Virus record (IMG/VR): IMGVR_UViG_3300009604_004140
Coordinates: 1-64,000 of that record
Reading direction: 5' to 3' (one strand)
Origin: a virus
DNA length: 64,000 nt
The notes under the pieces are model-generated. The model was not told the DNA's origin, did no database searches, and saw nothing but the letters and a program-made list of their open reading frames with translations. The position numbers and the translations under genes are program-made. Positions 18,693-63,653 of the stretch are shown piece by piece; positions within the stretch are counted from its first letter, which is position 1, and each line of letters starts with the position of its first letter.

Positions 18693-18696
18693 GGTA

Positions 18697-43116: not shown

Positions 43117-43743
43117 CTATTTTTTACCATAAAGGAGTTGGATTTTTTCAATGTCGTCTGCCCGTGGCTTTAAGGCATCATTGATATAGGGGTGCATAAG
43201 AGCTGTTTCATCTTCGGAATGGTACAACCCTAGCAAATGCCCTATTTCGTGGGCAGCAACTGTTCTTAGGATTATTCCACGCTTTTCCTCCGGGAGTATC
43301 CAGTTCTCCGCTAAATCAAAGACGGTGAGTAGCTGTCCGTCAAAGTTAAGGTACGGCGGCATTTGGGCCCATGCCAAAATATCTCCGCTTTTGCCAAATC
43401 CTAATTTGCGGCGGCGACTAACGCCAATTATAAAGTCTGCTTCCCTTTGGGAATCAACTTGCGAAAAGGCGAGGGGGCATACCTCCGACCAAGACTCGAA
43501 CGCTAGCTTAAATTGGGAGTCCCAAATTTCTGAATCCATGTCGTGAGTGTCACGACCCAACATAAAATATGTTAAATGGTTTTTGCCCCACTTATAGGGT
43601 TGGATTAGTTTTTTGTTATGGCCCCCCACACCACACCAACAGCGGGGGATTCTTGTGGCTCCGTTAGTGGTCTCTGTGGAAAAACCAAGGGCGCTTGCTG
43701 CCGCCCCATACAATAAAACATTTCGTCGAGATATAAGATTCAT
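43117..43743 (-). CDS. Tat-exported matrixin-like metalloprotease
   Basis: 208 residues. SRRNVLLYGAAASALGFS is a twin-arginine signal. The mature part has the M10 matrixin fold: LTYFMLGRD, WDSQFKLAFESWSEVCPLAF (the SQV-like strand to the substrate cleft), and the zinc site HEIGHLLGLYHS near residue 163, followed by the Met-turn ALMHPYI and the C-terminal DDIEKIQLLYGKK. Secreted zinc endopeptidase. It could degrade host surface or extracellular proteins. No haemopexin domain. A terminator bounds each side. Confidence 0.85.
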   Translation of the reverse strand: MNLISRRNVLLYGAAASALGFSTETTNGATRIPRCWCGVGGHNKKLIQPYKWGKNHLTYFMLGRDTHDMDSEIWDSQFKLAFESWSEVCPLAFSQVDSQREADFIIGVSRRRKLGFGKSGDILAWAQMPPYLNFDGQLLTVFDLAENWILPEEKRGIILRTVAAHEIGHLLGLYHSEDETALMHPYINDALKPRADDIEKIQLLYGKK

Positions 43744-45831: not shown

Positions 45832-46046
45832 TAATCGAAGGGGTCTTGAGTTCTTTTTCTTTTATTTTTTAATCTCTTCATCTGTGGATGGAGGGACTTT
45901 ACTGAAATAATCTTAATGTTTTTCTTGGGATTTTCCCACTCAAGACTATTTTCCATCATTGACTTCGCCTCTTCTGCGCTGGAAGCCAGCATTTCTTCTT
46001 CCTCAGTTTTATTTCCAACCCTGTATTTTACCAAAAACGGATGCAC
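45828..46046 (-). CDS. Small hypothetical protein
   Basis: 72 residues. FLVKYRVGNKTEEEEMLASSAEEAKSMMENSL and a strongly basic end (KRLKNKRKRTQ). Resembles small phage proteins with a beta-hairpin plus helix. The stop is shared with the convergent methyltransferase end. Function unknown. Confidence 0.5.
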   Translation of the reverse strand: MHPFLVKYRVGNKTEEEEMLASSAEEAKSMMENSLEWENPKKNIKIISVKSLHPQMKRLKNKRKRTQDPFDY

Positions 46047-46297
46047 TAATTTCTCCTTAATGAATATCTATTAGGGTCTGATAGGCCATTGTCTAAACGG
46101 CTTCTTTCGGTTATGTAATAGCCCTTGTCATCTTTACAAACTGCTTCAGAATGGTGGAGATGAGCAAGATATAGCTCATCACTTGGTTCCACTTCTTCGG
46201 GTTCTACAACCATGCTGGCATGACTACCAAACCAACTCTCAGTAGTTACTATGTTACCAGCCTCATGCCCTTTTGGCTTTGGTCTATATTTTACCAT
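46046..46297 (-). CDS. Small hypothetical protein
   Basis: 83 residues, beginning MVKYRPKPKGHEAG and with ELYLAHLHHSEAVCKDDKGYYI. It begins 23 bases after the tmRNA 3' end, so it probably needs a processed transcript. No motif known. Weakly supported. Confidence 0.45.
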   Translation of the reverse strand: MVKYRPKPKGHEAGNIVTTESWFGSHASMVVEPEEVEPSDELYLAHLHHSEAVCKDDKGYYITERSRLDNGLSDPNRYSLRRN

Positions 46298-46319
46298 TTG
46301 GATTTCCTTTTTTTATAAG

Positions 46320-46658
46320 TGGAGGCGGCGGGATTCGAACCCGCGTGCTGCCATGCTTCCATAACCGCTTCTACATGGTTAGTTTATTGTATTTGCACAA
46401 CAAACAAAGCTATCCGATTATCGGAGTCAGGGTTGCATACAACCATCAGAGATATAGATCGAGTATCTCCTTTCTCTATTCGAGTTATCGAAGTCAACAC
46501 AATTTGGTAAAAGGGCTTGTGTGGCCCCCGCAGCTTAAGCTGCCATTGCTAAACTAGGTTCGGCAAGTAAAAATTTAGTCAACTTTTATAGTGGCCCGTT
46601 GACCAACCACTCCATGCAACTATTATTTCCACATTCAGTCGATGCCAAATTCGCCCCC
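46320..46658 (-). ncRNA. ssrA: tmRNA (ssrA), one-piece
   Basis: Read on the minus strand. The 5' end is GGGGGCG-AATTTGGCATCGACT, the tmRNA start; the 3' end is GCGGGTTCGAATCCCGC (T arm) then CGCCTCC plus A. The 7-base acceptor stem pairs fully (one G-U). No CCA is encoded. Between the ends is an open reading frame for the tag, GCC-GAA-CCT-AGT-TTA-GCA-ATG-GCA-GCT-TAA, giving AEPSLAMAA. The remainder forms stems consistent with pseudoknots. About 339 bases, a usual size. It rescues stalled ribosomes and tags their products for degradation. Tagging by a phage copy may be selective. Confidence 0.88.
46535..46564 (-). other. tmRNA tag-peptide reading frame (AEPSLAMAA)
   Basis: Likely resume codon GCC at 46562-46564, stop TAA at 46535-46537. 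The tag ends in a hydrophobic Leu-Ala-Met-Ala-Ala like bacterial proteolysis tags (usually -LAA or -LAMAA type). The exact resume codon is inferred from frame and usual tag length. Confidence 0.75.
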
Positions 46659-46664
46659 CCCTTG

Positions 46665-46835
46665 TTAGGTACTGTTGCCTTTCATAAAGTCGCCAACCCA
46701 TATGTAGGCTAAATTTGCTATAGCATAGCACAGGAAAACCACAGCTAGAGCATAACTCTTTTTATTTATAGCAAGATCTAGGGCCACTATTAAATATAAT
46801 ATGAATGCCAATACTAGCGCCATAGCTCCCATCAT
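46665..46835 (-). CDS. 56-residue two-segment membrane protein
   Basis: AGGAGATGAA precedes the ATG at 46835. MALVLAFILYLIVALDLAI and YALAVVFLCYAIANLAYIW are two transmembrane helices with a short basic turn (NKKS). Ends 7 bases before the tmRNA start, so both may be on one transcript. Function unknown. Confidence 0.6.
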   Translation of the reverse strand: MMGAMALVLAFILYLIVALDLAINKKSYALAVVFLCYAIANLAYIWVGDFMKGNST

Positions 46836-46850
46836 TTCATCTCCTGTGGA

Positions 46851-47108
46851 CTATTCTTTATTTAGCGTGAGAGGGATGGTGGATACTTCGTCTGGACTAC
46901 AACATCCTTCTTCTGAATTTCCGCTCTCGCACGACGCTTGTTCTGGCTGCTTCGGAATATCTAAGATTGGCGAAGGGCTTGCAAGCTGAACCTCGGTTTC
47001 GCACTCTTCAAGGTGCTGCTTCAGCCTATTCAACTGTTCTTCGGCTTCTTGCACTCTATATCTTAGCTGTTCTGTGTACCCTAGGGCCATTTGTTCGAGA
47101 CTTACCAT
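46851..47108 (-). CDS. Small coiled-coil protein
   Basis: 85 residues. EQLRYRVQEAEEQLNRLKQHLEECETEV is a clear coiled coil; a polar C-terminus contains CESGNSEEGCCSP. No known family. It stands at the downstream end of the sugar cluster and stops 15 bases before the membrane gene. Confidence 0.5.
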   Translation of the reverse strand: MVSLEQMALGYTEQLRYRVQEAEEQLNRLKQHLEECETEVQLASPSPILDIPKQPEQASCESGNSEEGCCSPDEVSTIPLTLNKE

Positions 47109-47109
47109 A

Positions 47110-47559
47110 TTAAATACTCCTAATTTGAGATTTTCTTAATAGTTCACTGGAGGAATTAGTTTTGCTTCCTCCCACACCGTATACTGTTTTAATTTTTCTC
47201 CATTTGCAGTAGGCTTCTTCTGGGGAATCTTCTTCTGTTCTGTCTCCACCGTTTGCAAATGTCATGCCGTCAAAAAAATAGTCAGTGGCATAATCATTAT
47301 AGATTTCTTCCAGTGTTTTTGTTACTGATTCATCTTTGTCGATTGACAAATGCACATGGTCAACTGCTCGGAGGGCTGCTATTATACGCAATCTATCTGC
47401 TTCTCCCATGAATTGCACGGAGCCTTTGGCTTCAACTTGTTTATCGCTGTTAACAATAACAACAAGCTTATCTCCGAGCTTTGCTGCTCCTTCGATATAG
47501 TCGAGATGGCCGCAATGCAATGGATTGAAATATCCTGATATGACAACAACCCTACTCAT
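47110..47559 (-). CDS. Cytidylyltransferase-like nucleotidyltransferase
   Basis: 149 residues. GYFNPLHCGHLDYIEGAAKLG is the H-x-G-H signature of the nucleotidylyltransferase superfamily (TagD, RfaE C-domain), with DKLVVIVNSDKQVEAKG following. VQFMGEADRLRIIAALRAVDHV is typical of RfaE/HldE cytidylyl- or adenylyltransferase domains. With the heptose-type kinase and phosphatase next door it could activate a heptose or glycerol phosphate. ATGA coupling with the HAD gene. Confidence 0.75.
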   Translation of the reverse strand: MSRVVVISGYFNPLHCGHLDYIEGAAKLGDKLVVIVNSDKQVEAKGSVQFMGEADRLRIIAALRAVDHVHLSIDKDESVTKTLEEIYNDYATDYFFDGMTFANGGDRTEEDSPEEAYCKWRKIKTVYGVGGSKTNSSSELLRKSQIRSI

Positions 47560-47900
47560 ATTTCAATGTCTCCGAGTCCATCGTCCCTGCCAACATTTAT
47601 TGCAAAGGCTGTGTCGTCTCCGTTGGGGCGTCTATCATTAATAACAATGCGATTTCCTTTGCTAAGACCCATTACAAGCTGATCGTAGGGAATACCCAAT
47701 CTACCCAGTTGCAATTCAGTTGTCTTTCTCATGCTCTCTCGTCGTCCCGTCGTCAAGATTATTTTGTATTCTTTAGAACACCACTCGTTCAAACGATCCC
47801 TTGCATCGGGAAGAAGGGTTGCCTCCTTCATCGATATATCGCTAAAGGTTCCTTGATGCTTAAGGATAGTTCCGTCGATATCAATAAATAATGTTTTCAT
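47556..47900 (-). CDS. Small HAD phosphatase
   Basis: 114 residues. LFIDIDGTILKHQG is motif I, ILTTGRRESMRK motif II, and VINDRRPNGDD motif IV. It lacks a large cap, like the D-glycero-heptose bisphosphatase GmhB group or phosphoserine-type HADs. Between a GHMP kinase and a nucleotidyltransferase, it could remove a phosphate in the making of an activated heptose. This is inference from context. Confidence 0.7.
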   Translation of the reverse strand: MKTLFIDIDGTILKHQGTFSDISMKEATLLPDARDRLNEWCSKEYKIILTTGRRESMRKTTELQLGRLGIPYDQLVMGLSKGNRIVINDRRPNGDDTAFAINVGRDDGLGDIEI

Positions 47901-47902
47901 TT

Positions 47903-48874
47903 TTACTCCAGTATGCTTTCGGCTCCATTAAATTCTACCTTCAAGTCTAGAACGGGGCATCTTTTTTCTATAGATTCAACAAGGGATTTTTTAGATTTAC
48001 TATCACATAAGGCAGCAATAAATCCACTTCCACCGCTTCCGAGTAATTTAAGGCCATATATTTTGTTTTGCAATAAAAAATCTTCAAGGTCGTTTATTTC
48101 TGGGGTACAAATAGATCGAGATATTCTTTTCTTTTGGTTCCAGCTATCCATCATTAGCCTCCCAACCAACCGTAGGTCTTGTGAGCAAAAGGCCCTATAT
48201 GCTTCCTTGGAAATATCTTTTATGGCGAGCTTTATGTTCTCGGATTTTTCTGAGTCATGGCTTGCTGCTATCTTGCTTGTATCTCTTTGGATGTTTGTGT
48301 AAACAAGAAAAATTGAAGATTCAAATTCTTCCACAAACTCTTTACTTACCGGCAATGGCTTGACATTAAAAGATCCATCCTTTTTAATTTCTATGGAATT
48401 AAATCCCCCATAAGATGACCAAATTTGATCCTGAATTCCTCCCGCTTCCTTCAAAATATTTCTTTCAATATCAATTGCATCTAAGGCTATCTCCTTTTTG
48501 TCGGTAGGGAGCCCTAACAGCTTACGAATAGAATAGCATAGACCAACACAGCATGCCGAAGAACCGCCCAGCCCCGTTCTACTTGGGATGTCTGCGAAAA
48601 GATGCAAGTCCACAGCCCTCCTAACATTAAATTTTATTAGGGCTTCTCGAATAAGGGGGTTTTCTATGAGGGAATGGTCAGAAATTCTTTCTAGCTGTGA
48701 ATAGGCTATGACGCTTTCATGGTCTACTACCTTGGGGCGGAACCTCAGAGATGTGTATACATATTTGTCTATGGTAGCTCCAATGCAAAGAGACTCATGC
48801 TCACTAAAGAATGAGCTATAATCGGTAGACCCTCCAAAGAGAGAGACTCTAAAAGGAGCCCTGCTAATAATCAT
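47903..48874 (-). CDS. GHMP sugar kinase, heptose-7-phosphate-kinase-like
   Basis: 323 residues. N-terminal ISRAPFRVSLFGGSTDY, central RTGLGGSSACCVGLC (ATP-loop) and C-terminal LLGSGGSGFIAAL are the three GHMP motifs. GGIQDQIWSSYGGFNSIEI is typical of HddA-like and related sugar kinases in LPS and S-layer pathways. It phosphorylates the anomeric position of a sugar phosphate. Together with the next two genes it resembles a GDP-heptose type route. Confidence 0.78.
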   Translation of the reverse strand: MIISRAPFRVSLFGGSTDYSSFFSEHESLCIGATIDKYVYTSLRFRPKVVDHESVIAYSQLERISDHSLIENPLIREALIKFNVRRAVDLHLFADIPSRTGLGGSSACCVGLCYSIRKLLGLPTDKKEIALDAIDIERNILKEAGGIQDQIWSSYGGFNSIEIKKDGSFNVKPLPVSKEFVEEFESSIFLVYTNIQRDTSKIAASHDSEKSENIKLAIKDISKEAYRAFCSQDLRLVGRLMMDSWNQKKRISRSICTPEINDLEDFLLQNKIYGLKLLGSGGSGFIAALCDSKSKKSLVESIEKRCPVLDLKVEFNGAESILE

Positions 48875-49839
48875 AAATAATTAAACATGTGAGAGGTTTG
48901 TAACTGGCGTGCCGCCTTGTTCAGAGATATATACTCAAGAAAATCCACTATTTCATTGATCCCTTTTTCTACACTAAAGGCAGTATAATAACCTAAGTCA
49001 TAGAGCTTTTGGCTGCTTACTATATAATCTCGCTTGTCCGGGTCAGTTCGGCTAGCAACCTCTGAGAAGGAAGCTCCCGTTATTCTACAAACCAACTCTA
49101 CCAATTCCTTTTTGGTCATGTTGGCCTCGTCGTTTCCCAGATTATATACTTGACCCCTCATTTTATCAGAATTCCGTATAGCAAACTTAAATGCCCTGCA
49201 TATATCTTGCACATGAATATAGTTTCTTCTAAAGTGTCCGTCGAAAACATCAATATGCTTGTTAAACTTAGCCTCGTATGTTAGGTTGTTTACTAATAAG
49301 TCAAGACGTGGTCTGTAAGACCAACCAAAAACCGTAGCCAAACGAAAGCAAACAGTGTTGGGGTGGTTCTTTAACAAGAAATCTTCTGTGTCCTGCTTAG
49401 TTTCTCCGTAAAGAGAGAGGGGGTGGGACGGCGTTTCTTCGGTGCAGATTTCCTCTCCGGTAGACCCATATCCAGAATTTGTGTTGGGATAAATAATTAA
49501 TTTTTCTGCAATGTTTTCTTCCAAAAGCCTTTCGTACCACTCATAATTAATGCTTCTTGCGTATTTTGGTATTTTGTCACACGCAGGAGCACCCACTATT
49601 GCGGCAAGCGGGATTATAACATCGGCTTCTTGTATGCAACGTCTTAAGTCGTCGCTAAAATATCGAACATCTTCTTGGTAGAATTTAGATTTGTTTGTCA
49701 GCAAATGATAAAGCTGAGGCCCCTGACCATACATAAAATTATCAAAGGCAAAAACCTGAGAGTCTGTAATAATAGACTTGAGATACCAAGTAAGCATAGA
49801 TCCTATGTAGCCGCCTGCTCCAGTTATTAATATCTTCAT
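48871..49839 (-). CDS. NAD-dependent sugar epimerase/dehydratase
   Basis: 322 residues. ILITGAGGYIGSMLTWYL is the Rossmann GxxGxxG; SLYGETKQDTEDFL provides Tyr-x3-Lys; RRNYIHVQDICRAF follows. This is an extended SDR acting on nucleotide sugars. Substrate unknown. Coupled by ATGA with its neighbours. GxNxxGP-like substrate loops are not readable. Confidence 0.78.
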   Translation of the reverse strand: MKILITGAGGYIGSMLTWYLKSIITDSQVFAFDNFMYGQGPQLYHLLTNKSKFYQEDVRYFSDDLRRCIQEADVIIPLAAIVGAPACDKIPKYARSINYEWYERLLEENIAEKLIIYPNTNSGYGSTGEEICTEETPSHPLSLYGETKQDTEDFLLKNHPNTVCFRLATVFGWSYRPRLDLLVNNLTYEAKFNKHIDVFDGHFRRNYIHVQDICRAFKFAIRNSDKMRGQVYNLGNDEANMTKKELVELVCRITGASFSEVASRTDPDKRDYIVSSQKLYDLGYYTAFSVEKGINEIVDFLEYISLNKAARQLQTSHMFNYL

Positions 49840-51047
49840 CGTAAACTATTGCCTTCAAAGGGGATAATAAATTCCACACCACGATCAACCAAATCCCCAC
49901 ACTTGGAAATAATTTCATCAGCAAAGTTCCAACTAAGCAGCAACGCATAGCTATCGTCTTCGACTATGGAGTGGTCTTCTTTCACGATTGGTATATGGGT
50001 GTAGGGTGTGTAGAGGCCACATTTCATGGGGTTTACTTCAAACAAGCACTCTAACACATTGTTGTCAAGACCACAATAGGTTAAGAGGGTATTACCTTTT
50101 GCCGGAGCCCCAAATCCATAAATTTTCTTACCCTCCTCCCTTATGTCATTTATCTTTGCATTAAATTTTGACCTCCACTTAACAACCTTTTTGCCAAATC
50201 CCTTAAGGTTTTGGTAAGTTACGAACCTTGCTTCCTTTGCTGCAAGTTCTTTGTATCTCCTTCGACCGGATATTGCTGCCTCCTTGTGGGTGATCTTTGC
50301 AATAATACTTCCCCCATGAATGTCTGAGCGATAGGCGTCGAATATGGTAAGACCATGAGGCTTTAGTAGATTTGCTATAGATTGAAGGGAGTAGTAGCAA
50401 AGGTGCTCATGATAGATTCCGTCAAACGACATTTTTTCTATCATGTCACCCAGATACATGAACTGCACTACAAAAATTCCATCTCTAGTCAGTGCCTTTT
50501 TAATGCCCCTTATCACCGAATGCAATTCCTCTAGATGGAAGAAGACGCCGCTAGCATTGATAAGCTTTACCTTTCCGGCAAGGTCGTGCTTATCGACAGA
50601 AGCCTCGTTAAAAAATTCGGGGATCGTGCGAATGCCTGCTTCCTTGGATAGTTTGGCGATATTGAAAGCCGATTCTATATTTAGTACGTTGTCGCATCCA
50701 ATTCCCTTGTACTGTAAAAGTTGGGTGCCATCATTTCCGCCTATGTCAAGTATGAGATCCTTTTCGGTGAGACCGAATTGCTTCTTGTTTTCTGATGCTA
50801 CCTTGAAGAAGTGGAGACCTAGGGTTTCGGTGGTGCCACTTACATAGGAGTGATCAGCAAACATCACTTCTTTTTTTACAGTATAGTCCAGTTGTGCCAG
50901 CGAGCAGTTATGGCAATATACCATTCTGAGGGGATATAGAGGCTCTCTGCCCCTTTCTTTTAGTGTGATGAAGTGGTTGCACCATGCGTGCTTACCCAAG
51001 TCGAGGATTGTTTCAAGGCTACAGCCTCCGCAAGATCTACATTCCAT
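49836..51047 (-). CDS. Sugar C-methyltransferase (zinc-binding N-term plus SAM domain)
   Basis: 403 residues. Residues 1-60 hold CRSCGG and CHNC, the zinc-binding domain of NDP-hexose C-methyltransferases. Then a SAM motif ILDIGGNDGTQLLQ, and DGIYHEHLCYYSLQSI, the signature E/H-rich catalytic loop of the TylC3/EryBIII group. The C-terminal domain (KIYGFGAPAKGNTLL) is the usual second Rossmann-like domain. Methylates a 4-keto sugar carbon. A paralogue lies at 61465-62661. Confidence 0.8.
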   Translation of the reverse strand: MECRSCGGCSLETILDLGKHAWCNHFITLKERGREPLYPLRMVYCHNCSLAQLDYTVKKEVMFADHSYVSGTTETLGLHFFKVASENKKQFGLTEKDLILDIGGNDGTQLLQYKGIGCDNVLNIESAFNIAKLSKEAGIRTIPEFFNEASVDKHDLAGKVKLINASGVFFHLEELHSVIRGIKKALTRDGIFVVQFMYLGDMIEKMSFDGIYHEHLCYYSLQSIANLLKPHGLTIFDAYRSDIHGGSIIAKITHKEAAISGRRRYKELAAKEARFVTYQNLKGFGKKVVKWRSKFNAKINDIREEGKKIYGFGAPAKGNTLLTYCGLDNNVLECLFEVNPMKCGLYTPYTHIPIVKEDHSIVEDDSYALLLSWNFADEIISKCGDLVDRGVEFIIPFEGNSLR

Positions 51048-51942
51048 ACTTTATATTCCTATAATAGTCTATTGTTTCTTTAAGGCCATTTGCAAGAGAG
51101 GTATGGTTGCAAGCCCCGACCAGAGGACTTGCCTCCAGCTTCTTTGATTTTACTCCTTCAAATGCGGTGGCATCAAACTCAATATCCTCATAATTATACT
51201 CTATATAATCACAGATTAGTTTAGCATACTCTTTGATGCTAAGCTCACTACCGGTCCCCAGATTTATCACCTCGTTCTCAAGCTTGTCAAGGGAGTCTAG
51301 GACGACATTGATGGTGTCTTTAATATAAATAAGCTCTCGACACTGGTTGCCGCTGCCCCATAAAGTTACCGGTGTTTTGCCTTCATATTTTGCAGAGCAA
51401 ATCTTTTTAATAAGATCAAAAATAAAATGGGAGTCGTCAATATCGAAGCTGGGGCCAAAGAGGGTATTGGGAATAAAGTATAAAAATTTCATATCATACT
51501 GCTTAGAAAGAGCTTTCATTCCAGTGAGAAGCATTCTTTTTGTCATAGCATATGTAAATAAATCTTTATCTGGAGTGCCATTGAAATAATTATCTTCTGA
51601 CTTTATCTTGTCTGGAGGATAAGCGCAGCTTGTTCCAAAGGCAATTAGCTTTGCCTGTGGCTGATGCTCCTTCCAATAGCAAAGCATGTTGGTATTAATC
51701 TTTTGGTTATTTATCCACTGCTCTCCGGGGTGATGAAGACAAAAATCTCCCGCCTTTGTCCAAGCGGCTAAATGAAAAATATAATCGAGGGGACAGTTTA
51801 TTATCGATGGGTCAATGGGCTCCAACAAATTCATTCTGGACGTATCGGATACAAAAATTTTAGAATGAGGATACTCTTCCAAAACGCCAGACTTAAGGTG
51901 TCTTCCAACAAAGCCCCTGTGTCCAGTTATTAATATCTTCAT
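51037..51942 (-). CDS. GDP-L-fucose synthase-like epimerase/reductase
   Basis: 301 residues. ILITGHRGFVGRHLKSG is the dinucleotide loop, TSCAYPPD the catalytic Ser region, YAMTKRMLLTG the Tyr/Lys pair, and ELIYIKDTINVVL the C-terminal domain start. The SYPP-like CAYPPDK and NTLFGPSFD motifs match the Fcl group more than others. It would reduce and epimerise a 4-keto-6-deoxyhexose. Confidence 0.72.
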   Translation of the reverse strand: MKILITGHRGFVGRHLKSGVLEEYPHSKIFVSDTSRMNLLEPIDPSIINCPLDYIFHLAAWTKAGDFCLHHPGEQWINNQKINTNMLCYWKEHQPQAKLIAFGTSCAYPPDKIKSEDNYFNGTPDKDLFTYAMTKRMLLTGMKALSKQYDMKFLYFIPNTLFGPSFDIDDSHFIFDLIKKICSAKYEGKTPVTLWGSGNQCRELIYIKDTINVVLDSLDKLENEVINLGTGSELSIKEYAKLICDYIEYNYEDIEFDATAFEGVKSKKLEASPLVGACNHTSLANGLKETIDYYRNIKYGM

Positions 51943-52667
51943 GGCTTCCTTATTAAATATAGCATATCATTTCTTATGTCGTCAAAAAGAGGTGTGTTTA
52001 ATACGTGAAACTCCATTGCTTGTTGTATGACTGGATATTTGCCCTCACGCATCACCGCGCTTGAATAGCTGTCATCGCCACTTGCCTCCTTGACCGATAG
52101 GGTATCCCGAATAGTGTGCCAGCCATACTTCAAGGCTATCGCGTGTAGAGGAAACCAGTCGCATTTAAAGGAGAACTCTTCTATAAATTTACCAAACTCA
52201 AGAAGGGCTCCTCTCTCAAACGAAGTGCAATGCCCCGGAATGTAATACCATCCCATATCTTGCAGCCCCTTGCAGAAACCCTGCTTTGGGAGGTGGTGGT
52301 CTGAAGTTACCATAGGAGGACTATATTTTTCTATGATTTCTCGGTGTCGTTTGGCAAAATCGGGAAGCAAGTAATCATCGGCAGACCCAAAGTAAAGATA
52401 ATCACATTCAGACATATCAAAGCCAGTGTTTATTGTTGCTACAACCCCTTTGTTTTCGTAGTTAAGCTCTATTTTAACATTTAGCTCATCTTTATTCTCG
52501 TCATAGAATTTTTGTATAACCTCCTTGCTGTTATCGCGTTCAGAACCATCGTCAATAACGATTACCTCATCAAACTTTTCGGTTTGAGATTTTATAGAGG
52601 CTAGCTGCCTAGCAAGGGTGGGGGCGTGATCCTTGTTTGCAATTATTATACTTAGAACGTTACCCAT
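51939..52667 (-). CDS. GT2 family glycosyltransferase
   Basis: 242 residues. LSIIIANKDHAPTLARQLASI and VIVIDDGSERDNS are the standard GT-A motifs; YFGSADDYLLPDF holds the DxD. A short enzyme that transfers one sugar from a nucleotide donor. It lies between the fucose synthase and the TPP-enzyme genes with small overlaps. Confidence 0.85.
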   Translation of the reverse strand: MGNVLSIIIANKDHAPTLARQLASIKSQTEKFDEVIVIDDGSERDNSKEVIQKFYDENKDELNVKIELNYENKGVVATINTGFDMSECDYLYFGSADDYLLPDFAKRHREIIEKYSPPMVTSDHHLPKQGFCKGLQDMGWYYIPGHCTSFERGALLEFGKFIEEFSFKCDWFPLHAIALKYGWHTIRDTLSVKEASGDDSYSSAVMREGKYPVIQQAMEFHVLNTPLFDDIRNDMLYLIRKP

Positions 52668-53263
52668 TCTCCTGCTCCTACGTGTGGGTATTTGGTCTTA
52701 ACGTAGCTATATTTTATTTCGTGCTTACTTAATCTTGAGGGAGGCGTATCGTGAAAGAAATCCTGTGAGCCCCATGCTGTTTGCGTGGGAGCGCCTACAC
52801 TATAGCCATTGTCTTCGATTATAAACATTAAAGGAAGATCATAGTTTTCAGTAAACTTTAAAGACTCCTGATAGATTCCTGTTTCCCTACCCATGTCTCC
52901 GACGAAGCACCATACCTTCTGTGGAGAGCCCTTCTTCTTGAGGGCCAATGCTGCTCCCACAGCTATTGAGGGCGTTGATCCTACGATTGCGGAAGTAAAA
53001 AATTTAGGATCGGAGGAATTTATGGACATGCTCCTGCCCATAATTATTTGTTCTTTAAGCCATACGGGATCTAATCCATGAAGCAGTGCGTGATAATGGT
53101 TTCTCCAAGTAGAGAACACCCAATCGTTACCGTCAATGCTTTTAAAGATGTCTATTAATTGATCTTCATTCCCATCGGATAGATGGATGGGAGCCTTGAT
53201 TTTGGCCTGCAAGAATTCTTCTTTGATGTCGGTCTCAAAGCGAATTAAATCTTCTTTATTCAT
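52652..53263 (-). CDS. Compact TPP-enzyme E1-alpha-like subunit
   Basis: 203 residues, versus about 320 in ordinary E1-alpha. STWRNHYHALLHGLDP and the TPP-binding stretch VGDMGRETGIYQESL ... FIIEDNGYSV are retained (GD...DN motif with GDM in place of GDG). AIVGSTPSIAVGAALALK resembles the domain core. N- and C-terminal extensions are missing. It forms a pair with the next gene. It may make or cleave a two-carbon unit on a sugar, or supply a branched-chain sugar. Confidence 0.65.
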   Translation of the reverse strand: MNKEDLIRFETDIKEEFLQAKIKAPIHLSDGNEDQLIDIFKSIDGNDWVFSTWRNHYHALLHGLDPVWLKEQIIMGRSMSINSSDPKFFTSAIVGSTPSIAVGAALALKKKGSPQKVWCFVGDMGRETGIYQESLKFTENYDLPLMFIIEDNGYSVGAPTQTAWGSQDFFHDTPPSRLSKHEIKYSYVKTKYPHVGAGEWVTF

Positions 53264-53782
53264 TTAAGCAATCCAATTCTCTACAATGAGGAAGCTTCCT
53301 TCGTCGTTGTATGCGCTCTTGTATGTGCTGCATATTTCAGAGGGATGATTAATTTCTAAGACATTTATGTTGGGGCACATCAAACGAAAGGCCTCTGTAT
53401 GATTCTGTGTATGCTGTGGTCCTGCGTCCAGCGGCTTCTTCGCGCCCACCGCCGTCCGGATTATCACCTTGGGCTTATCGCTATCTCTGTACAAGTAGTT
53501 CAGTTTGTCTAGGTGATTTACTAATTGATTAGTGGCCAGTATTAAAAAATCAAATCGAGGATAAATGGATATTGGAACGTACCCTTCTAGAGAAAGGCCT
53601 ATTGAGATGCCCATCTGCATCTCTTCGGCAACCGGCATCTCTAATTTTTTGCCATCTGGAATGTCTAAGAGGTTTCGATACATTTGATTTTCTGGGTAAA
53701 CAATGTTTTGCCCCACAAATATTGTATCTGGCTGCTCAGCTAGCCACTCCATCGCCTTCTTGAGTTCTTCTTTTATGTCCAT
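53264..53782 (-). CDS. Compact TPP-enzyme E1-beta/Pyr-domain subunit
   Basis: 172 residues, versus about 325 for ordinary E1-beta. MPVAEEMQMGISIGLSLEGY holds the conserved Glu of the Pyr domain, and ISIYPRFDFLILATNQLVNHL and RTAVGAKKPLDAGPQHTQ follow; the transketolase C-terminal domain is absent. The start of the previous gene directly follows this stop. It must work with the 203-residue partner. Function inferred, substrate unknown. Confidence 0.65.
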   Translation of the reverse strand: MDIKEELKKAMEWLAEQPDTIFVGQNIVYPENQMYRNLLDIPDGKKLEMPVAEEMQMGISIGLSLEGYVPISIYPRFDFLILATNQLVNHLDKLNYLYRDSDKPKVIIRTAVGAKKPLDAGPQHTQNHTEAFRLMCPNINVLEINHPSEICSTYKSAYNDEGSFLIVENWIA

Positions 53783-53784
53783 CC

Positions 53785-54735
53785 CTACATCCTAATGATA
53801 GGCTTTCTCTCTTTACCCCAGTTTGATATAGCAACGTTAATATCTTCCAGAGTGTACTCGATTCCCGCTATAATTGAAAAATCTTCTAGGAACGTTGCAT
53901 ATATAGGGATGTCTCTTTCGGGAACGGTAGATCCTCCCGCACTTCCCTTGAGCGATTTACCCCTTATAAGATCAAAAGGATCAATCTCTACCGTAGATTT
54001 AGAAGGGGTGTTGCCCACCATGATAAGGGTTCCTTTTTTGAGAACGCCCCATCCGAATCTAAAGGCATTAATATTCCCCGTCACATCAATTATACAGTCA
54101 ATCTCATTATTATTATACTCTTCTAAGCCTAGGGTCTGGAGAATATTTTTTCTGTCGAGAGAGATATCATGCCCATAAGTCTTTTTGGCAATCTTGGATG
54201 CCCACACGCAGGCCGCAGCCCCTACTCCTCCCAGACCCAAAACGAGGATTCTACTTTCTGAGATGTCCTCAATTTCATTCTTTATAACTCCTGCTCCTGT
54301 GGGGATACAGCATCCTAGAAGCGGCCCATATTTGTGGAGATGGGGAGGCAATGAGATGGGGGTCAGTCTATTTTCGGAAACTACTGAATATTCTGAAAGG
54401 GTGCATGCCTTTCCCGAATTTATTCTGCCGTATGAAATAGGATCGCACTCTAGACCTTCCCCTTTTATCCAGCTTATTACTACGAGGTCTCCTTCTTGTA
54501 CCTTCGTGACCCCCTTTCCCGTATCAACTACCTTGCCGTACCCTTCGTGCCCCAGAGTGTGCGGAAGGAATTTGTCTTCTCCCTTTAGGCCGTTTATTTC
54601 ATTTAGTTGGCTGCCGCAAACAGAAGAATAAAATATTTTAACTAAAACCTGTGCTGCCTGTGGCTTAGGAACCTCTAGGTCCACTATTTCAAGAGGCTTT
54701 TTGATTCCAGTTAGAATTGCTGCTTTAAATTTCAT
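53785..54735 (-). CDS. Zinc-type alcohol/polyol dehydrogenase (MDR family)
   Basis: 316 residues. SVCGSQLNE and LGHEGYGKVV provide the catalytic zinc ligands; KVQEGDLVVIS and ILVLGLGGVGAAACVWA give the catalytic and Rossmann domains. The Cys-rich structural zinc loop is absent. MDR enzymes oxidise or reduce sugar or polyol hydroxyls. In this cluster it may reduce a keto-sugar. Confidence 0.75.
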   Translation of the reverse strand: MKFKAAILTGIKKPLEIVDLEVPKPQAAQVLVKIFYSSVCGSQLNEINGLKGEDKFLPHTLGHEGYGKVVDTGKGVTKVQEGDLVVISWIKGEGLECDPISYGRINSGKACTLSEYSVVSENRLTPISLPPHLHKYGPLLGCCIPTGAGVIKNEIEDISESRILVLGLGGVGAAACVWASKIAKKTYGHDISLDRKNILQTLGLEEYNNNEIDCIIDVTGNINAFRFGWGVLKKGTLIMVGNTPSKSTVEIDPFDLIRGKSLKGSAGGSTVPERDIPIYATFLEDFSIIAGIEYTLEDINVAISNWGKERKPIIRM

Positions 54736-54784
54736 TAGACCCGCGTTGGCATAAGACCTTATTTTTCACTATAACATCTTTGTT

Positions 54785-55438
54785 CTATGGAATAAACCAA
54801 TAAAAGTCTCCGCTATAGCCTACCTCTTCAAAAAGCGCCTTCCAATCCTTGACACTCATCATGGTCTGTGCTGTAAGATTCCAATCTCTCATGCTTTTCT
54901 CTTCTTCGTATGTATTCCATGCGTCTACAGTTAAAAAGCAGTCTCTTCCTATTCTTTCAAGCTCGCGTAGGGATTGTTTGCATTCTTCAAGTGGGAGATT
55001 GTGTATGGTATTAATTGATATTACCAAGTCAAACTCTTTGTCTTTGAAGCAACTCAAGTCCTTTGCGTTTCTTACTTCAAGGTAAGGCTTTACGAACCAG
55101 TGGGAGTTTTCAATGGCCCAGTTAGATATGTCTATTCCTTTAACTTTGATGCCGGGAACTGCTTGGGTGAGGTCAAAAAGCATATATCCTTTAGCACACC
55201 CAACATCAAGAACATTACTATCCTTCGTTAGACTATAATGATTCATAAGGGTCTTTACGACCCCTTCCCAGAACTCAGGTCTATAGGAATATCCGCCATA
55301 GCCAACAGACCTATCTCCATCAAAGAAATCTTTTTCGAACTGGCGTGCTACGCGACGATGCTCGTCTGTTTTTTTCTGAGCACGCTCCTTTGGGTTTCTT
55401 TTGGTCCTAGGATATTCTTTTAAAAGATTAATTTCCAT
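54785..55438 (-). CDS. Class I SAM methyltransferase
   Basis: Start at the ATG at 55438, which overlaps the FkbM stop; 217 residues. VLDVGCAKGYMLFDLT is motif I, VKGIDISNWAIEN motif II, FDLVISINTIHNLP motif IV. A small-molecule or sugar methyltransferase. The C-terminal helix-and-sheet cap is short. Substrate unknown. It lies between the dehydrogenase and FkbM. Confidence 0.75.
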   Translation of the reverse strand: MEINLLKEYPRTKRNPKERAQKKTDEHRRVARQFEKDFFDGDRSVGYGGYSYRPEFWEGVVKTLMNHYSLTKDSNVLDVGCAKGYMLFDLTQAVPGIKVKGIDISNWAIENSHWFVKPYLEVRNAKDLSCFKDKEFDLVISINTIHNLPLEECKQSLRELERIGRDCFLTVDAWNTYEEEKSMRDWNLTAQTMMSVKDWKALFEEVGYSGDFYWFIP

Positions 55439-56273
55439 AGAAGCTATCAAACCTTCCACTGATAAACAAAGAGCCTTCCTTATAGCTTACAGGTATGTCA
55501 TCGATTCCTACAACAGGAAGCCATCCTAGTTTTTGGGACAGCATATTTAATGTGTTAAATCTATTAAATATAATTTCGGCACTTCGGACGCTTCCTACTT
55601 CGAGAACCATGTCCATCGTGTCGAAGGCTTTTATATCAATGGCTTCTAAGATCGTGTCTTCGTGCCCCTCTGCATCAATCTTAACAAGATCAGCATTCTT
55701 AACTATGTCATTAATATCTACCGTGGCAACTTCCGTCACTTCGGTTGGCCCATATACCGCATCCTTTGATCCCTGTAGGTGGCTGCTAGTGGTGTTGTCG
55801 AGGATTCTTACAAAGCTGGCAGCCCCTTGGTGGTTTGATACAGCCGCCTTGTGCGGGCTTATGTTTTCACAGTTATTGATACGCACATTATTTAATAGCT
55901 CACCATAGTGCGTATCGTCAGGTTCATAGGAGCTTACATTGAATCCGCATTTATCCATAAAGATTGAGTGTAGCCCTAGGTTCGCCCCAATATCAACAGC
56001 CGAGCTATATCTATTCCTATTATGCCAGTAAAAGCTGAATAAGATTATCTCATCTAAGTCAAATAGGTTGATGGTGTTGCACTTACCCATTTTAAAATAT
56101 GGAATAACAAGCTCTAGGCCTCCAAAATTTATGTAGTTGTCATACCCCATATCCATTTCGTAGTGGTGGTAAATATAATTCTGAAGGTCTTCGTATATTG
56201 AATTGTATTCGGGGCACCCTCGCTGGTGATAGCTTGGTATAGTGGGGAGGTGTTCTATTAGTCTATCTAGCAC
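55428..56273 (-). CDS. FkbM-family methyltransferase
   Basis: 281 residues. VDIGANLGLHSIFMDKCGF and SYEPDDTHYGELLNNV are the FkbM SAM-binding motifs, TVDINDIVKNADLVKIDAEGHEDTILE is the family's characteristic strand with KID-x-E-G-x-E. FkbM enzymes O-methylate sugars or polyketides, here probably a surface sugar. The upstream part has a small extra helix region. Confidence 0.82.
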   Translation of the reverse strand: MLDRLIEHLPTIPSYHQRGCPEYNSIYEDLQNYIYHHYEMDMGYDNYINFGGLELVIPYFKMGKCNTINLFDLDEIILFSFYWHNRNRYSSAVDIGANLGLHSIFMDKCGFNVSSYEPDDTHYGELLNNVRINNCENISPHKAAVSNHQGAASFVRILDNTTSSHLQGSKDAVYGPTEVTEVATVDINDIVKNADLVKIDAEGHEDTILEAIDIKAFDTMDMVLEVGSVRSAEIIFNRFNTLNMLSQKLGWLPVVGIDDIPVSYKEGSLFISGRFDSFYGN

Positions 56274-56300
56274 AGAAATATCCTCTCTATTTTATAAGGT

Positions 56301-57284
56301 TTAAAAAACCCCTAGGCAGTACGGGTCGTATGCCGCTAAGGGTCCTACTAAATTGTCTACTTGATCATAGTCTTCTTCGCTTGGTTTTGTAGACAGAGCA
56401 CTGATGTTTTCACGTAGCTGCCTTATAGTTCTGACTCCTAATATGACAGCAGAAACGGGCGTCTGTGATAGTGCCCAGTTTAATGACATAGAAAGAATTG
56501 ACTGAGATCTAGAAACCGCGAACTGATGTATGAGTTTAATTTTTTTACGAATAAATGAATCCACATCGCCCCTAACGCTGTCGCTAAGTCGGGCTCGTGA
56601 CTGGGAAGGGAGTTCTTCTTGTAAATATTTATCCGTTAAAACACCGCGAGCTAGGGAACCATATGCCAACACTCCAATATTGTGATGTGTGCATAATGGA
56701 AATGTAGTTAGCAAATGTTTTCTTTTGAATAAATTTAATCCCATTTGTGCAGACACAAAAAAGTTTTTATTGATACCATTGTTTAATGCGGTCTTTAATT
56801 CATCTGTTGAAAAGTTGCATATTCCATAGTATCTAATTTTTCCCTGTTCTACTAAAAGATTTAAAGCCTCTAAGGTGTCTTCAATGGGTGTTTCTGGATC
56901 AAAACGATGTATTTGATAAAGATCAATAACGTCCGTTTGTAAGGCCTTTAGGCTGCGTTCTGCTTTTTCTGCAATCAACCGTGGTGTAGCACTAAGCTCA
57001 CAAGGCTGTCCCTTTCTCGTTCCCAGCTTGGTGGCTACTACCCAATTTGACCTGCTGGATTCATATTTAAGAAACCTACCTATTATATCTTCTGACATGC
57101 CGTTTCCGTAGACATCTGCCGTATCTATAAAGTTTATATCTAAAGATTCGGCGTGATGCAGTATTGTATAAGCCTCTTTAGCTTCGACGTATGAGCCAAA
57201 AAGATTGCCCCCAATGCCTATGGGTGAAATTAACAGCTCTGATTTTCCTAGAAAGGTTTTCACTTCAGGCTCCCCTTGGCCCAT
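56301..57284 (-). CDS. Aldo/keto reductase
   Basis: Start at the ATG at 57284 (327 residues); the longer frame to 57335 has no better site and overlaps the SDR further. FIDTADVYGNGMSE holds the catalytic Asp and Tyr, VVATKLGTR the Lys, YQIHRFDPETP the His: the AKR tetrad. NADPH-dependent reduction of keto-sugars is the likely role in this cluster; no substrate loop identified. Confidence 0.82.
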   Translation of the reverse strand: MGQGEPEVKTFLGKSELLISPIGIGGNLFGSYVEAKEAYTILHHAESLDINFIDTADVYGNGMSEDIIGRFLKYESSRSNWVVATKLGTRKGQPCELSATPRLIAEKAERSLKALQTDVIDLYQIHRFDPETPIEDTLEALNLLVEQGKIRYYGICNFSTDELKTALNNGINKNFFVSAQMGLNLFKRKHLLTTFPLCTHHNIGVLAYGSLARGVLTDKYLQEELPSQSRARLSDSVRGDVDSFIRKKIKLIHQFAVSRSQSILSMSLNWALSQTPVSAVILGVRTIRQLRENISALSTKPSEEDYDQVDNLVGPLAAYDPYCLGVF

Positions 57285-58080
57285 TGTAAAGCAGATGGAA
57301 TGGGTCCTGAATATAACCGCCACCATCAACCCCAATGACTTGACCTGTAATAAATGAGGAAAGGTCTGATGCTAAAAACAGAACAGCGTTTGCCACATCC
57401 AATGAAGAACCAATCCGATCCAATGAAACTGAGTGTATGGCAGTGTCTTTCCAAGTTTTATTTGACAGTTTGTTAAATCGCCCCTCATGTTCCTTCTGAA
57501 CAATAAAGCCGGGAGCTATGGCGTTGACTCTAATGCCGAACTTCCCTGCGCTTACAGCTAGAATTCTAGTTAGCTGCTCCAGAGCCGCTTTAGAGAGTTG
57601 GTAGGAAGGAGATTCAGAGGAGACAAAGGAACCGGAGACAGAAGACATGTTTATAATATTGCCTCTTGTACCGCTGGACTTCATTAGATCAATTGAAAGC
57701 CTTGACAAAAAGAAGGCCCCTTTGAGGTTGACATCAAATGTAAGATTCCAATTATCGCTCCCCTCGCTTTCAACCGAAGCGCGACTACCTCCGCGAGCAT
57801 TGTTTACTAGGGTATGTATGGTGCCATATTTTTCGCGCACATAATCAATCAGGTTTTGACAGCTCTCCTCGCTGGTGAGATCTAGGTACTGATGGTCTGC
57901 TTGAAGGGTTTTATTGCAGGACAGGCTATGCTCTTTTAGTTTAAGCAAAGACTCTTGATCCTTGTCTGCAATTATAACATTGGCATCCCTTGATCCAAAA
58001 AGATCTGCCACTTGTTGTCCAATGCCACGAACGCCCCCTGTGACCAATATGGTTTTATTTCCAAAGTATAGATCTTTCAT
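57265..58080 (-). CDS. Short-chain dehydrogenase/reductase
   Basis: 271 residues. TGGVRGIGQQVADLF, NNARG, NMSSVSG, YQLSKAAL are the SDR motifs in order; the Ser-Tyr-Lys triad is complete. Reduces or oxidises a sugar hydroxyl. Overlaps the aldo/keto reductase by 20 bases. Confidence 0.85.
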   Translation of the reverse strand: MKDLYFGNKTILVTGGVRGIGQQVADLFGSRDANVIIADKDQESLLKLKEHSLSCNKTLQADHQYLDLTSEESCQNLIDYVREKYGTIHTLVNNARGGSRASVESEGSDNWNLTFDVNLKGAFFLSRLSIDLMKSSGTRGNIINMSSVSGSFVSSESPSYQLSKAALEQLTRILAVSAGKFGIRVNAIAPGFIVQKEHEGRFNKLSNKTWKDTAIHSVSLDRIGSSLDVANAVLFLASDLSSFITGQVIGVDGGGYIQDPFHLLYNGPRGA

Positions 58081-58988
58081 TTATAGACTCTATCTAAAAA
58101 CAGAGAGAGAAGCTCTGGGGTCTCGTGTTTACGAACGATGTGTTGGTTTTGTTTCGCAAAATCGTAATGGTCTGCATCCCCTATTTCTTTTTGCATGACC
58201 TCCGCATGGTGAAGGGGGTGCTTGAAAATAATATAAGGAACTTGGCTCAGGATGGCGACGTTGGCCGGGCCGCTGACCATTCCCATAAAAGCTGAAGACT
58301 GTTGAATGCATGTAAGCTGGTCAACAATAGATAGTCCTTCATCGTGAAGAGATATAACATTTGGCAGAGACTTGATATCTTCGGGGACTGTGTCCGATCC
58401 TATTAGCAGAAATTGTATGTCGAGCGGGGCTTTTAGGCTAATAAATTCTTTCCACGTAGAAAAATTTGCATTGCTTTCAGTGTCTCCTTGGGAGGCATTC
58501 TTTAAGTGCACGCAAACGGTAAACTTATTTCCAAAAGATGGCTTATTCTGTTTTAAGTCTAGATGTGGAGCCTCTCCATATTCTTTATGCAGCAGGCTCG
58601 TTATTCGTGTTGTGTTGTAGGGGCTTCCTGTTATGTTGGCAGCTTTGCATATTTCTAGATTAGGAAATAAGATTTGCTGTTGATGTTTTGAAAAGAAGTC
58701 TTCTGAAGACTCATAGGTACATATGCAATCCAACTCTAGTGCGTCAAATAGTATTCCCAGCCAGTGCCCTTCTAGATCTTGTCTTAATAAGAGATCTTTT
58801 TTTAGTTCTTTGATTCCGGTCAAGTTTGATATTTCAGCATTGCTCCCAATCAAAGCTAGTTGGCCCACGCAAAGACCGCTGAGCTTCGCGTAACATTGTA
58901 GGTTGCTTATAAAAATACACAGGGAGCCAAGACGAACGGGTTCCTTTTCTATTTCCCAAAATGCAGAAATGGTCGCTTTAAATCCCAT
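58077..58988 (-). CDS. Glycosyltransferase-like (GT-B, GT9/heptosyltransferase-like)
   Basis: Start at 58988 overlaps the transketolase stop by 11 bases; the 59081 frame is discarded (303 residues). FTVCVHLKNASQGDTESNANF and LLIGSDTVPEDIKSL are in the position of the GT9 donor-binding lobe; FMGMVSGPANVAILSQVPYIIFKH follows like the D/E-G-P loop. A sugar transferase acting on a surface glycan; heptosyltransferase identity is only plausible. Confidence 0.6.
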   Translation of the reverse strand: MGFKATISAFWEIEKEPVRLGSLCIFISNLQCYAKLSGLCVGQLALIGSNAEISNLTGIKELKKDLLLRQDLEGHWLGILFDALELDCICTYESSEDFFSKHQQQILFPNLEICKAANITGSPYNTTRITSLLHKEYGEAPHLDLKQNKPSFGNKFTVCVHLKNASQGDTESNANFSTWKEFISLKAPLDIQFLLIGSDTVPEDIKSLPNVISLHDEGLSIVDQLTCIQQSSAFMGMVSGPANVAILSQVPYIIFKHPLHHAEVMQKEIGDADHYDFAKQNQHIVRKHETPELLSLFLDRVYK

Positions 58989-59904
58989 GTAACTCAACGA
59001 CCCTTTCTGTAAGATTTTCTGGGGTAAGACCGAGCCGATTGCAGTGATCAGTGTAGCTTCCATAGCTGTGGATAAAGGCATCTCCCAAGTTAATAGATGA
59101 ATATCTTACATTGCCCAAGTCATTGCAGCAACGAATAACATCATCATAAACACCTCCATACATACTATGTTCTTCTATAACAATACATCTTTTAGTTTTA
59201 GATACGCTCTTCCTTATAGTGTCAACGTCAAGAGGTTTTATTGTATGGTAGTATATTATTTCGGGGTCAATTCCCCTTTCCTCCAGCATATCTATAGAAT
59301 GCATGGCTGTTTTTAAATGTGGCCCCAGAGCTATTACGGTGATATCTTTTCCCTCTTTTGCAACGATACCTTTGCCAAATTTAATTTGATCATCAGAAAA
59401 ATCAAATTCATGCTTAGCTTCTGGAATTCTAAAGTAAGTTGGGTTGCCGTTGTCGTATGTCTCCTTAAATAAAAGATTGAACTCTTTGCAACTGGCGGGA
59501 TAAATTATCTCCATATTTTCTATTGTTTTGAGTATTGCGAAATCTCCGTAACAGTGGTGGGTGCATCCCAAGGCACCATAGTCAAACGCACTACCAACGG
59601 CGACTAGATTGACGCCAAGCTTCTGATAGCCAAAGTCCAGCTTTATTTGTTCTAGAGATCTCTCCACAAGGAATGGGGCAATTGTGTGCACAACAGGAAT
59701 TAACCCAACCTTTGAAAGTCCTGCTGCCATGTTTACAGTAGAGGGCTCGCATATGCCTATGTTGTAATATCTACTGGGGCATCCTTCTGCGAAGGGCTGT
59801 AGCGCAAAATGGCTAATGTCTCCAATCAAAACAACCAAGCGTTGATCCCTGCGTCCCACTTCGAGCATTGTGTCAGCAAATTCTTGTCTTAGTTTTTTAC
59901 TCAT
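58978..59904 (-). CDS. Transketolase, C-terminal subunit
   Basis: 308 residues. GDISHFALQPFAEGCPSRYYNIGICEPSTVNMAAGL has the Pyr-domain Glu, and VAVGSAFDYGALGCTHHCYGD and YFRIPEAKHEF the rest; the transketolase C-terminal domain (DITVIALGPHLKTAM) completes it. Forms with the next gene a split transketolase, or a DXS-like enzyme. It would make or use heptulose phosphates, fitting with the heptose-like kinase. Confidence 0.8.
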   Translation of the reverse strand: MSKKLRQEFADTMLEVGRRDQRLVVLIGDISHFALQPFAEGCPSRYYNIGICEPSTVNMAAGLSKVGLIPVVHTIAPFLVERSLEQIKLDFGYQKLGVNLVAVGSAFDYGALGCTHHCYGDFAILKTIENMEIIYPASCKEFNLLFKETYDNGNPTYFRIPEAKHEFDFSDDQIKFGKGIVAKEGKDITVIALGPHLKTAMHSIDMLEERGIDPEIIYYHTIKPLDVDTIRKSVSKTKRCIVIEEHSMYGGVYDDVIRCCNDLGNVRYSSINLGDAFIHSYGSYTDHCNRLGLTPENLTERVVELHGI

Positions 59905-60685
59905 CTTGCGAAAGTTCCCCTTCGATATCTTTCATCTCTTCGTCGGTAGGAACTCTGTGGTGCCAAGGGCCATGGCCTTCTGTAAAGCTGACCCCCTTTC
60001 CCTTGACGGTGTGTGCGATTATTACTTTTGGTTTGGAGTCAAGGTTAAACTCCATGCTTTCTATCGTGTCTAATATTTCTTTTTCATCATGGCCATCTAT
60101 TTCGTAGGCTTCCCATCCGAAAGACTCCCAGATAGACTTCATGTTTGGGAAGTTAAGTATTTGGTCAATTGACTTATTTTTATCAACTATCAGGCAAAGG
60201 TTTCCTAGTTTTAAATTTTGAGCAATCAAAGCAGTTTCCCAAACGGTTCCTTCGTTGCTTTCCCCGTCCCCGATCAAAGAGAAAACCTTATTACTCTTTC
60301 TTTTTATTTTGAGTCCCAAGGCAATTCCCATGGCGGTTACAAGACCGTGGCCCAAAGACCCGGTTGAAGCTTCTGCGCCGGGAACCTTGGTGCAGTCTGG
60401 GTGCCCTCCTAGAATACCACCTTCTTTACCTTTATTCTTTAGGTCTTCCTCAGAGATAAAACCATATTTTTCCAGAACTACATACAGGGCTGCTGCGCCA
60501 TGCCCTTTACTCAGGATAAAATAATCCCTGTCTTCCCAGTCTGGGTTTGACGAATCAAACCTTAAGACCTTATCATATAGCGTGGCGATTATATCAACAA
60601 TAGAATATGCGCTAGGGATATGGCCTTCGCCAGCATTTTTAATAATCTTGGCAATTTTTATTCTAAGCTTGTTGTTTTTTTTCAT
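59897..60685 (-). CDS. Transketolase, N-terminal subunit
   Basis: Start at 60685 overlaps the FabG-like stop (AATGA); 262 residues. AGEGHIPSAYSIVDIIATLY, FILSKGHGAAALYV, TGSLGHGLVTAMG, SLIGDGESNEGTVWET (TPP motif GDG...) and VDKNKSIDQ are all present. It carries the diphosphate-binding half, the partner carries Pyr and C domains. Split transketolases occur in many bacterial sugar clusters. Confidence 0.85.
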   Translation of the reverse strand: MKKNNKLRIKIAKIIKNAGEGHIPSAYSIVDIIATLYDKVLRFDSSNPDWEDRDYFILSKGHGAAALYVVLEKYGFISEEDLKNKGKEGGILGGHPDCTKVPGAEASTGSLGHGLVTAMGIALGLKIKRKSNKVFSLIGDGESNEGTVWETALIAQNLKLGNLCLIVDKNKSIDQILNFPNMKSIWESFGWEAYEIDGHDEKEILDTIESMEFNLDSKPKVIIAHTVKGKGVSFTEGHGPWHHRVPTDEEMKDIEGELSQDE

Positions 60686-61455: not shown

Positions 61456-61464
61456 TTAAATCTC

Positions 61465-63646: not shown

Positions 63647-63653
63647 ATTGATC

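What the first reader, a model, noticed from the sequence alone, without database searches (positions are those of the whole stretch)
46320..46658. Phage-encoded tmRNA with its own tag peptide
Complete acceptor stem, T arm, tmRNA-type 5' start and a tag frame AEPSLAMAA are all visible. tmRNA carried by phages is uncommon. A phage copy could replace a degraded host rescue system or change how tagged proteins are destroyed.
Basis: partly seen in the sequence, partly recalled or inferred. Interest (0 to 1): 0.8.

Follow-up and report, generated by a model that had tools for sequence, protein, structure and literature searches.

The report
A phage's own ribosome-rescue RNA
This virus of bacteria carries a complete, well-preserved gene for tmRNA, the RNA that frees stuck ribosomes and tags the unfinished protein for destruction; phages with such a gene are already known, so this is a good new example rather than a new kind of thing.

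Summary
A complete one-piece tmRNA gene lies on the minus strand at 46317-46658 (Rfam RF00023, 96.9 bits against a cut-off of 47, E 1.4e-36), although ARAGORN misses it. It has a 7-bp acceptor stem with the G3:U70 alanine signal, discriminator A73, T-arm, H2, pseudoknots PK1 and PK2, a probable PK3, and a tag frame AEPSLAMAA* ending in a hairpin. CCA is not encoded. In an alignment with 19 phage relatives (62-77% identical), 84% of cells pair, against 71% in shuffles and 40-46% when slid, with 53 pairs changed on both sides. So the RNA is under selection, not a relic. The locus is syntenic with a related phage contig (tag AEKEILALAA). No SmpB was found in this record or in 39 other tmRNA-bearing viral records, so it must use host SmpB, AlaRS, CCA-adding enzyme and proteases. 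Modestly new is a marine phage tmRNA clade with a shared hairpin, often in two copies, and a three-hairpin array where PK4 normally sits. The host is unknown, so 'replaces' or 'rewires' host rescue remains unsupported.

The parts
46317..46658 (-). complete one-piece tmRNA gene (ssrA); mature RNA expected 46658-46320 plus CCA added after transcription
   Evidence: Rfam RF00023 96.9 bits, E 1.4e-36; 84% of cells paired with covariation in 20 sequences
46636..46658 (-). 5' half of the tRNA-like domain: acceptor strand GGGGGCG and D-loop-like GG..UCGAC
   Evidence: cmscan alignment; G3:U70 and A73 in 20 of 20 sequences
46578..46611 (-). pseudoknot PK1: AGUGG/CCACU and GUCAAC/GUUGAC
   Evidence: helices 5 and 6: 100% and 93% of cells paired, two and five pairs changed on both sides
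46535..46564 (-). tag reading frame AEPSLAMAA*, resume codon GCC, stop UAA inside the H5 loop
   Evidence: sequence; homologous frame in the relatives translated, e.g. AEKEILALAA, AEKQFALAA, ADTSVLALAA
46530..46543 (-). hairpin H5, GCAGC UUAA GCUGC, holding the tag stop codon
   Evidence: perfect in the window; equivalent helix of 4-8 bp in the other sequences; only 61% of cells in the automatic alignment
46497..46529 (-). pseudoknot PK2: GGGGGC/GCCCUU and ACACAA/UUGUGU
   Evidence: helices 8 and 9: 88% and 93% of cells paired, three and six pairs changed on both sides
46478..46492 (-). hairpin A (UUCGA/UCGAA inside GACU...AUAG), first copy of the clade hairpin
   Evidence: helix 10: 94% of cells paired
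46448..46476 (-). probable pseudoknot PK3: GAG/CUC and GGAGAUA/UAUCUCU
   Evidence: forms in the window; covariation inconclusive, 48% of cells paired, region poorly aligned
46431..46444 (-). hairpin B, GGUUG UAUG CAACC
   Evidence: helix 13: 86% of cells paired, three pairs changed on both sides
46413..46425 (-). hairpin C, UCCGA UAA UCGGA, second copy of the clade hairpin (within 46410-46428)
   Evidence: exact 20-mer TGACTCCGATAATCGGATAG in 52 viral contigs, lying in tmRNA in all records read; helix 14 79% paired
46382..46405 (-). hairpin D, GUUUGUUGU/ACAAUAAAC, ends the array at the PK4 position
   Evidence: helix 15: 90% of cells paired, four pairs changed on both sides
46320..46378 (-). 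3' strand of H2, T-arm GCGGG UUCGAAU CCCGC, acceptor 3' strand and discriminator A73
   Evidence: helices 2, 3, 4 and 16: 92-100% of cells paired
46665..46835 (-). 56-aa small hydrophobic ORF just upstream, possibly in the same transcription unit
   Evidence: ORF list; neighbour only, no role shown
46046..46297 (-). 83-aa ORF starting 22 nt after A73, unknown function
   Evidence: ORF list; no Pfam match

Best explanation
It is a functional phage-encoded tmRNA. Inferred mechanism: during infection it is transcribed with its neighbours, its ends are trimmed by host enzymes, CCA is added, and host alanyl-tRNA synthetase charges it through G3:U70. With host SmpB it enters ribosomes stalled on broken mRNAs (expected to be abundant when host DNA and mRNA are destroyed), switches translation to the resume codon GCC and adds AEPSLAMAA. 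It then releases the ribosome at UAA and leaves the tagged fragment for host proteases. The benefit to the phage is continued ribosome recycling when host tmRNA is insufficient or no longer made. Shown here: gene integrity, structure, conservation, synteny, absence of SmpB. Inferred: expression, processing, charging, tagging, benefit.
For: Full-length RF00023 match. G3:U70 and A73 in 20 of 20 sequences. Covariation: 258 both-sided changes against 89 in shuffles, 84% of cells paired against 40-46% when slid. Tag frame ending in [LM]AA in the relatives translated. Conserved position between the nucleotidyltransferase, HAD phosphatase and sugar kinase genes upstream and the DUF6582, matrixin and SSB-like genes downstream in contig G010, with neighbouring proteins 36-89% identical. 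No SmpB in this record or 39 other tmRNA-bearing records, which implies host SmpB. [quoted passage not shown]
Against: No expression or activity data. ARAGORN misses it. The conserved GGAC before the T-arm reads GCAC, though relative L279 has the same base. H5 is short. PK3 was not confirmed by covariation. No promoter-like site above chance next to the gene.
Confidence: 0.85

Rival explanations
1. It is a decoy: it competes for host SmpB and alanyl-tRNA synthetase to dampen host trans-translation, as proposed for the phage DS6A RNA that has only the tRNA-like domain.
For: DS6A-type RNA inhibits tmRNA (PMC4131195; PMC11915505). The phage supplies RNA but no SmpB.
Against: The mRNA-like part is complete, with a tag frame and covarying pseudoknots; a decoy would not need them conserved.
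Confidence: 0.06
2. The tag redirects proteins: this phage's tag differs from the host tag so that tagged proteins are degraded differently, for example host fragments recycled or phage proteins spared. (An addition to the best explanation rather than an alternative to it.)
For: Tags differ between related phages (AEPSLAMAA, AEKEILALAA, AEKQFALAA, ADTSVLALAA). Recycling of host proteins was speculated for Melnitz (PMC9004378).
Against: Tags drift between bacteria as well. The ...AA ending is the ordinary protease signal. The host and its tag are unknown.
Confidence: 0.15
3. It is a captured or decaying copy of a host ssrA, for example left by integration at an attachment site.
For: tmRNA genes are common integration sites (PMC9004378 and PMC11915505 mention this).
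Against: Whole gene, not a 3' fragment. No tyrosine-integrase match in the record. Syntenic in a diverged relative. Covariation excludes decay. No similarity beyond the 3' part in 547 sampled genomes of two phyla.
Confidence: 0.03

Closest known systems
Bacterial one-piece tmRNA (ssrA), Rfam RF00023
   Same: tRNA-like domain with G3:U70 and A73, H2, PK1, tag frame, H5, PK2, probable PK3
   Different: CCA not encoded; three hairpins where PK4 normally sits; short H5; missed by ARAGORN
Mycobacteriophage tmRNAs (Bxz1, Cali, Catera, Wildcat) and Bacillus phage G
   Same: phage-encoded tmRNA (PMC4131195); the Wildcat tmRNA is very highly expressed (PMC7474061)
   Different: Different phages and hosts; sequences not compared here
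Methylophage Melnitz tmRNA
   Same: aquatic phage tmRNA (PMC9004378)
   Different: Melnitz has the permuted two-piece form under a glutamine riboswitch; this one is one-piece and no riboswitch was found
Phage DS6A RNA (tRNA-like domain only)
   Same: phage-borne tmRNA-derived RNA
   Different: DS6A lacks the tag part; here it is complete

Membership tests
tmRNA (RF00023, one-piece) | score above the curated covariance-model cut-off, full length | tested here: met
   96.9 against 47 bits, model 1-374
tmRNA (RF00023, one-piece) | tRNA-like domain with alanine identity G3:U70 and a T-arm | tested here: met
   7-bp acceptor, G3:U70, A73 in 20 of 20; T stem 99% of cells paired
tmRNA (RF00023, one-piece) | tag frame with a resume codon and hydrophobic C-terminus, then a stop | tested here: met
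   AEPSLAMAA* and homologous frames in relatives
tmRNA (RF00023, one-piece) | PK1 and PK2 | tested here: met
   88-100% of cells paired with both-sided changes
tmRNA (RF00023, one-piece) | PK3 | tested here: inconclusive
   forms in the window; 48% of cells paired in a poorly aligned region
tmRNA (RF00023, one-piece) | PK4 | tested here: inconclusive
   three covarying hairpins occupy the position; no pseudoknot pairing found by eye. PK4 is replaced or absent in some accepted tmRNAs (own knowledge), so it is not treated as essential
tmRNA (RF00023, one-piece) | partner protein SmpB available | tested here: inconclusive
   absent from this 65-kb fragment and from 39 other records; the host gene cannot be checked because the host is unknown
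tmRNA (RF00023, one-piece) | alanylation and trans-translation activity | not testable with these tools
   needs experiment
Permuted two-piece tmRNA (RF04321, RF01849) | 3' part placed before the 5' part in the gene | tested here: not met
   standard order in the RF00023 alignment; no match to the permuted families

The most novel reading that the evidence does not exclude
A marine-dominated phage tmRNA lineage has evolved its own architecture (a repeated UGACUCCGAUAAUCGGAUAG hairpin and a hairpin array in place of PK4) and its own tags, tuned to infection: for example to work when host tmRNA is gone, or to sort host from phage fragments for degradation. ('Marine' rests on my reading of the related records, not on a test.)
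Probability: 0.15. Interest if true: 0.6.

Novelty: new member of a known kind. Interest (0 to 1): 0.3.

Why it matters
It adds a clean case that phages maintain the RNA half of ribosome rescue under purifying selection while leaving SmpB to the host, here in a record with no other tRNA gene. The clade gives covariation-grade data on phage tmRNA structure. It also shows that ARAGORN misses phage tmRNAs that covariance models find, so surveys based on ARAGORN undercount them.

Tried and rejected
Blastn of the locus against 50,697 phage records gave no match. ARAGORN down to an 80% threshold gave nothing, and 70% gave only spurious frames in the part of its output that was printed. Host prediction failed: tblastn of the polymerase and reductase hit phages of many hosts below 60% identity, and the tmRNA matched sampled bacteria only at the 3' part (44 of 299 genomes in the phylum of G105, 1 of 248 in the phylum of G100). 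An attachment-site relic was rejected. Decay was rejected by covariation. Promoter and terminator scans were no better than chance; hairpin C looks terminator-like but lies inside the RNA. Changing the GCAC base to see whether ARAGORN then finds the gene was left out: it would have meant altering a viral sequence, and the answer did not depend on it.

Full report
Observation. Rfam's tmRNA model matches 46658-46317 on the minus strand over its whole length with 96.9 bits, cut-off 47, E 1.4e-36. No tRNA or other RNA family reaches its cut-off in the window. ARAGORN does not report the gene, not even with its score threshold lowered to 80%. It also misses two relatives whose tmRNA the covariance model finds, G087 and G046, although for G046 it gives a spurious permuted call.

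Anatomy. The 342-nt stretch begins GGGGGCG and ends CGCCUCC-A-CUU. The acceptor stem pairs 7 of 7 with G3:U70, the alanyl-tRNA synthetase identity element (established knowledge), and discriminator A73; CCA is not encoded. PK1 is AGUGG/CCACU interleaved with GUCAAC/GUUGAC. The frame GCC GAA CCU AGU UUA GCA AUG GCA GCU UAA reads AEPSLAMAA*, with the stop in the loop of H5 (GCAGC UUAA GCUGC). PK2 is GGGGGC/GCCCUU interleaved with ACACAA/UUGUGU. Then follow hairpin A, a probable PK3 (GAG/CUC and GGAGAUA/UAUCUCU), hairpins B, C and D, the 3' strand of H2, the T-arm and the acceptor.

Selection. I aligned the window with 19 viral relatives, 62-77% identical to it. For the structure drawn from the window, 84.2% of cells form standard pairs, against 71.0% in shuffles and 40-46% when partners are slid by 1-3 columns. 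There are 53 pairs with changes on both sides (shuffles 37.3) and 258 such cells (shuffles 89.4); none of 500 shuffles reaches these values. Two cautions apply: the sequences are related, and the structure was drawn from one of them, which by itself favours it over the slid versions. The low figure for the acceptor helix (68%) is an alignment shift at the 5' end; read directly, all 20 sequences pair at least 7 bp with G3:U70. PK3 is not confirmed by covariation (48%), which I put down to poor alignment there, but that is inference.

Surroundings. The record is a 65,157-base IMG/VR contig. It has a DnaE-like polymerase, DnaB-like helicase, primase, UvsX-like recombinase, PhoH and ribonucleotide reductase, all typical of phages. 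No terminase was found in it beyond a weak match that falls on the PhoH gene, but two polymerase relatives carry one (G022, G041), so the window is probably a fragment. The closest syntenic relative, G010, keeps the order epimerase, sugar kinase, HAD phosphatase, nucleotidyltransferase, small ORF, tmRNA, small ORFs, DUF6582, matrixin, SSB-like protein, with proteins 36-89% identical. Its tag is AEKEILALAA. Of 44 polymerase relatives, mostly fragments, three have a tmRNA.

Family. The exact 20-mer of hairpin C occurs in 52 viral contigs, inside tmRNA in all records read, and 22 of 22 tested records pass the RF00023 cut-off. In several tmRNAs, the window included, the hairpin occurs in two versions, one after PK2 and one before hairpin D. 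Tags in this group include AEKQFALAA, AEKNFSLAA, VEENFALAA and ADTSVLALAA.

Mechanism. No SmpB (PF01668) was found in the window's record or in 39 further tmRNA-bearing viral records, while the control genomes rang. The phage therefore appears to supply only the RNA and to rely on host SmpB, alanyl-tRNA synthetase, EF-Tu, CCA-adding enzyme and proteases. These records may be fragments, so absence is not proof. The simplest account is boosted ribosome rescue during infection. High phage tmRNA expression is documented for mycobacteriophage Wildcat (PMC7474061). Expression, charging and tagging here are inferred.

Known or new. Phage tmRNAs are established: Bxz1, Cali, Wildcat, phage G and others (PMC4131195), and 402 of 18,146 phage genomes, given as 2.3%, in one survey (PMC9004378). 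This is a new member of a known kind. The hairpin array at the PK4 position and the shared hairpin are a modest structural variation; I could not show whether they come from a bacterial lineage, because 547 sampled genomes from two phyla matched only the 3' part. The host, and so any difference between host tag and phage tag, remains unknown.

Noticed in passing
window 16013-20556 (-): DnaE-like DNA polymerase is split into two ORFs (18697-20556 and 16013-17653, both phrog_405, different halves) with two ORFs between them.
   Followed up: no
window 46851-63995 (-): Long sugar-nucleotide and glycan cluster: nucleotidyltransferase, HAD phosphatase, GHMP kinase (heptose-pathway-like), epimerases, C-methyltransferases, glycosyltransferase.
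   Followed up: no
window 43117-43743 (-): Matrixin-type (M10) zinc protease in a phage, also in the syntenic contig G010.
   Followed up: no
window 46410-46428 and 46476-46495 (-): Two related hairpins inside the tmRNA; the exact 20-mer TGACTCCGATAATCGGATAG is found in 52 viral contigs, all read ones in tmRNA.
   Followed up: partly
L285:4184-4257, L286:4187-4259, L070:1195-1267, L071:1212-1291: A tRNA-Ile with anticodon TAT lies about 150-290 nt upstream of the tmRNA in four related phages.
   Followed up: no
L285:4445-5434, L286:4448-5437: ORF that reads like a class I fructose-bisphosphate aldolase beside the phage tmRNA (named from its sequence by eye, no family search).
   Followed up: no
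L004:2717-3050; also L090, L124, L144, L163: Phage tmRNAs with unusually long apparent tag frames (30 codons in L004).
   Followed up: no
L006: Phage contig with tmRNA (tag GNAEYAMAA), about 26 tRNAs and a GOLLD RNA in 15 kb.
   Followed up: no
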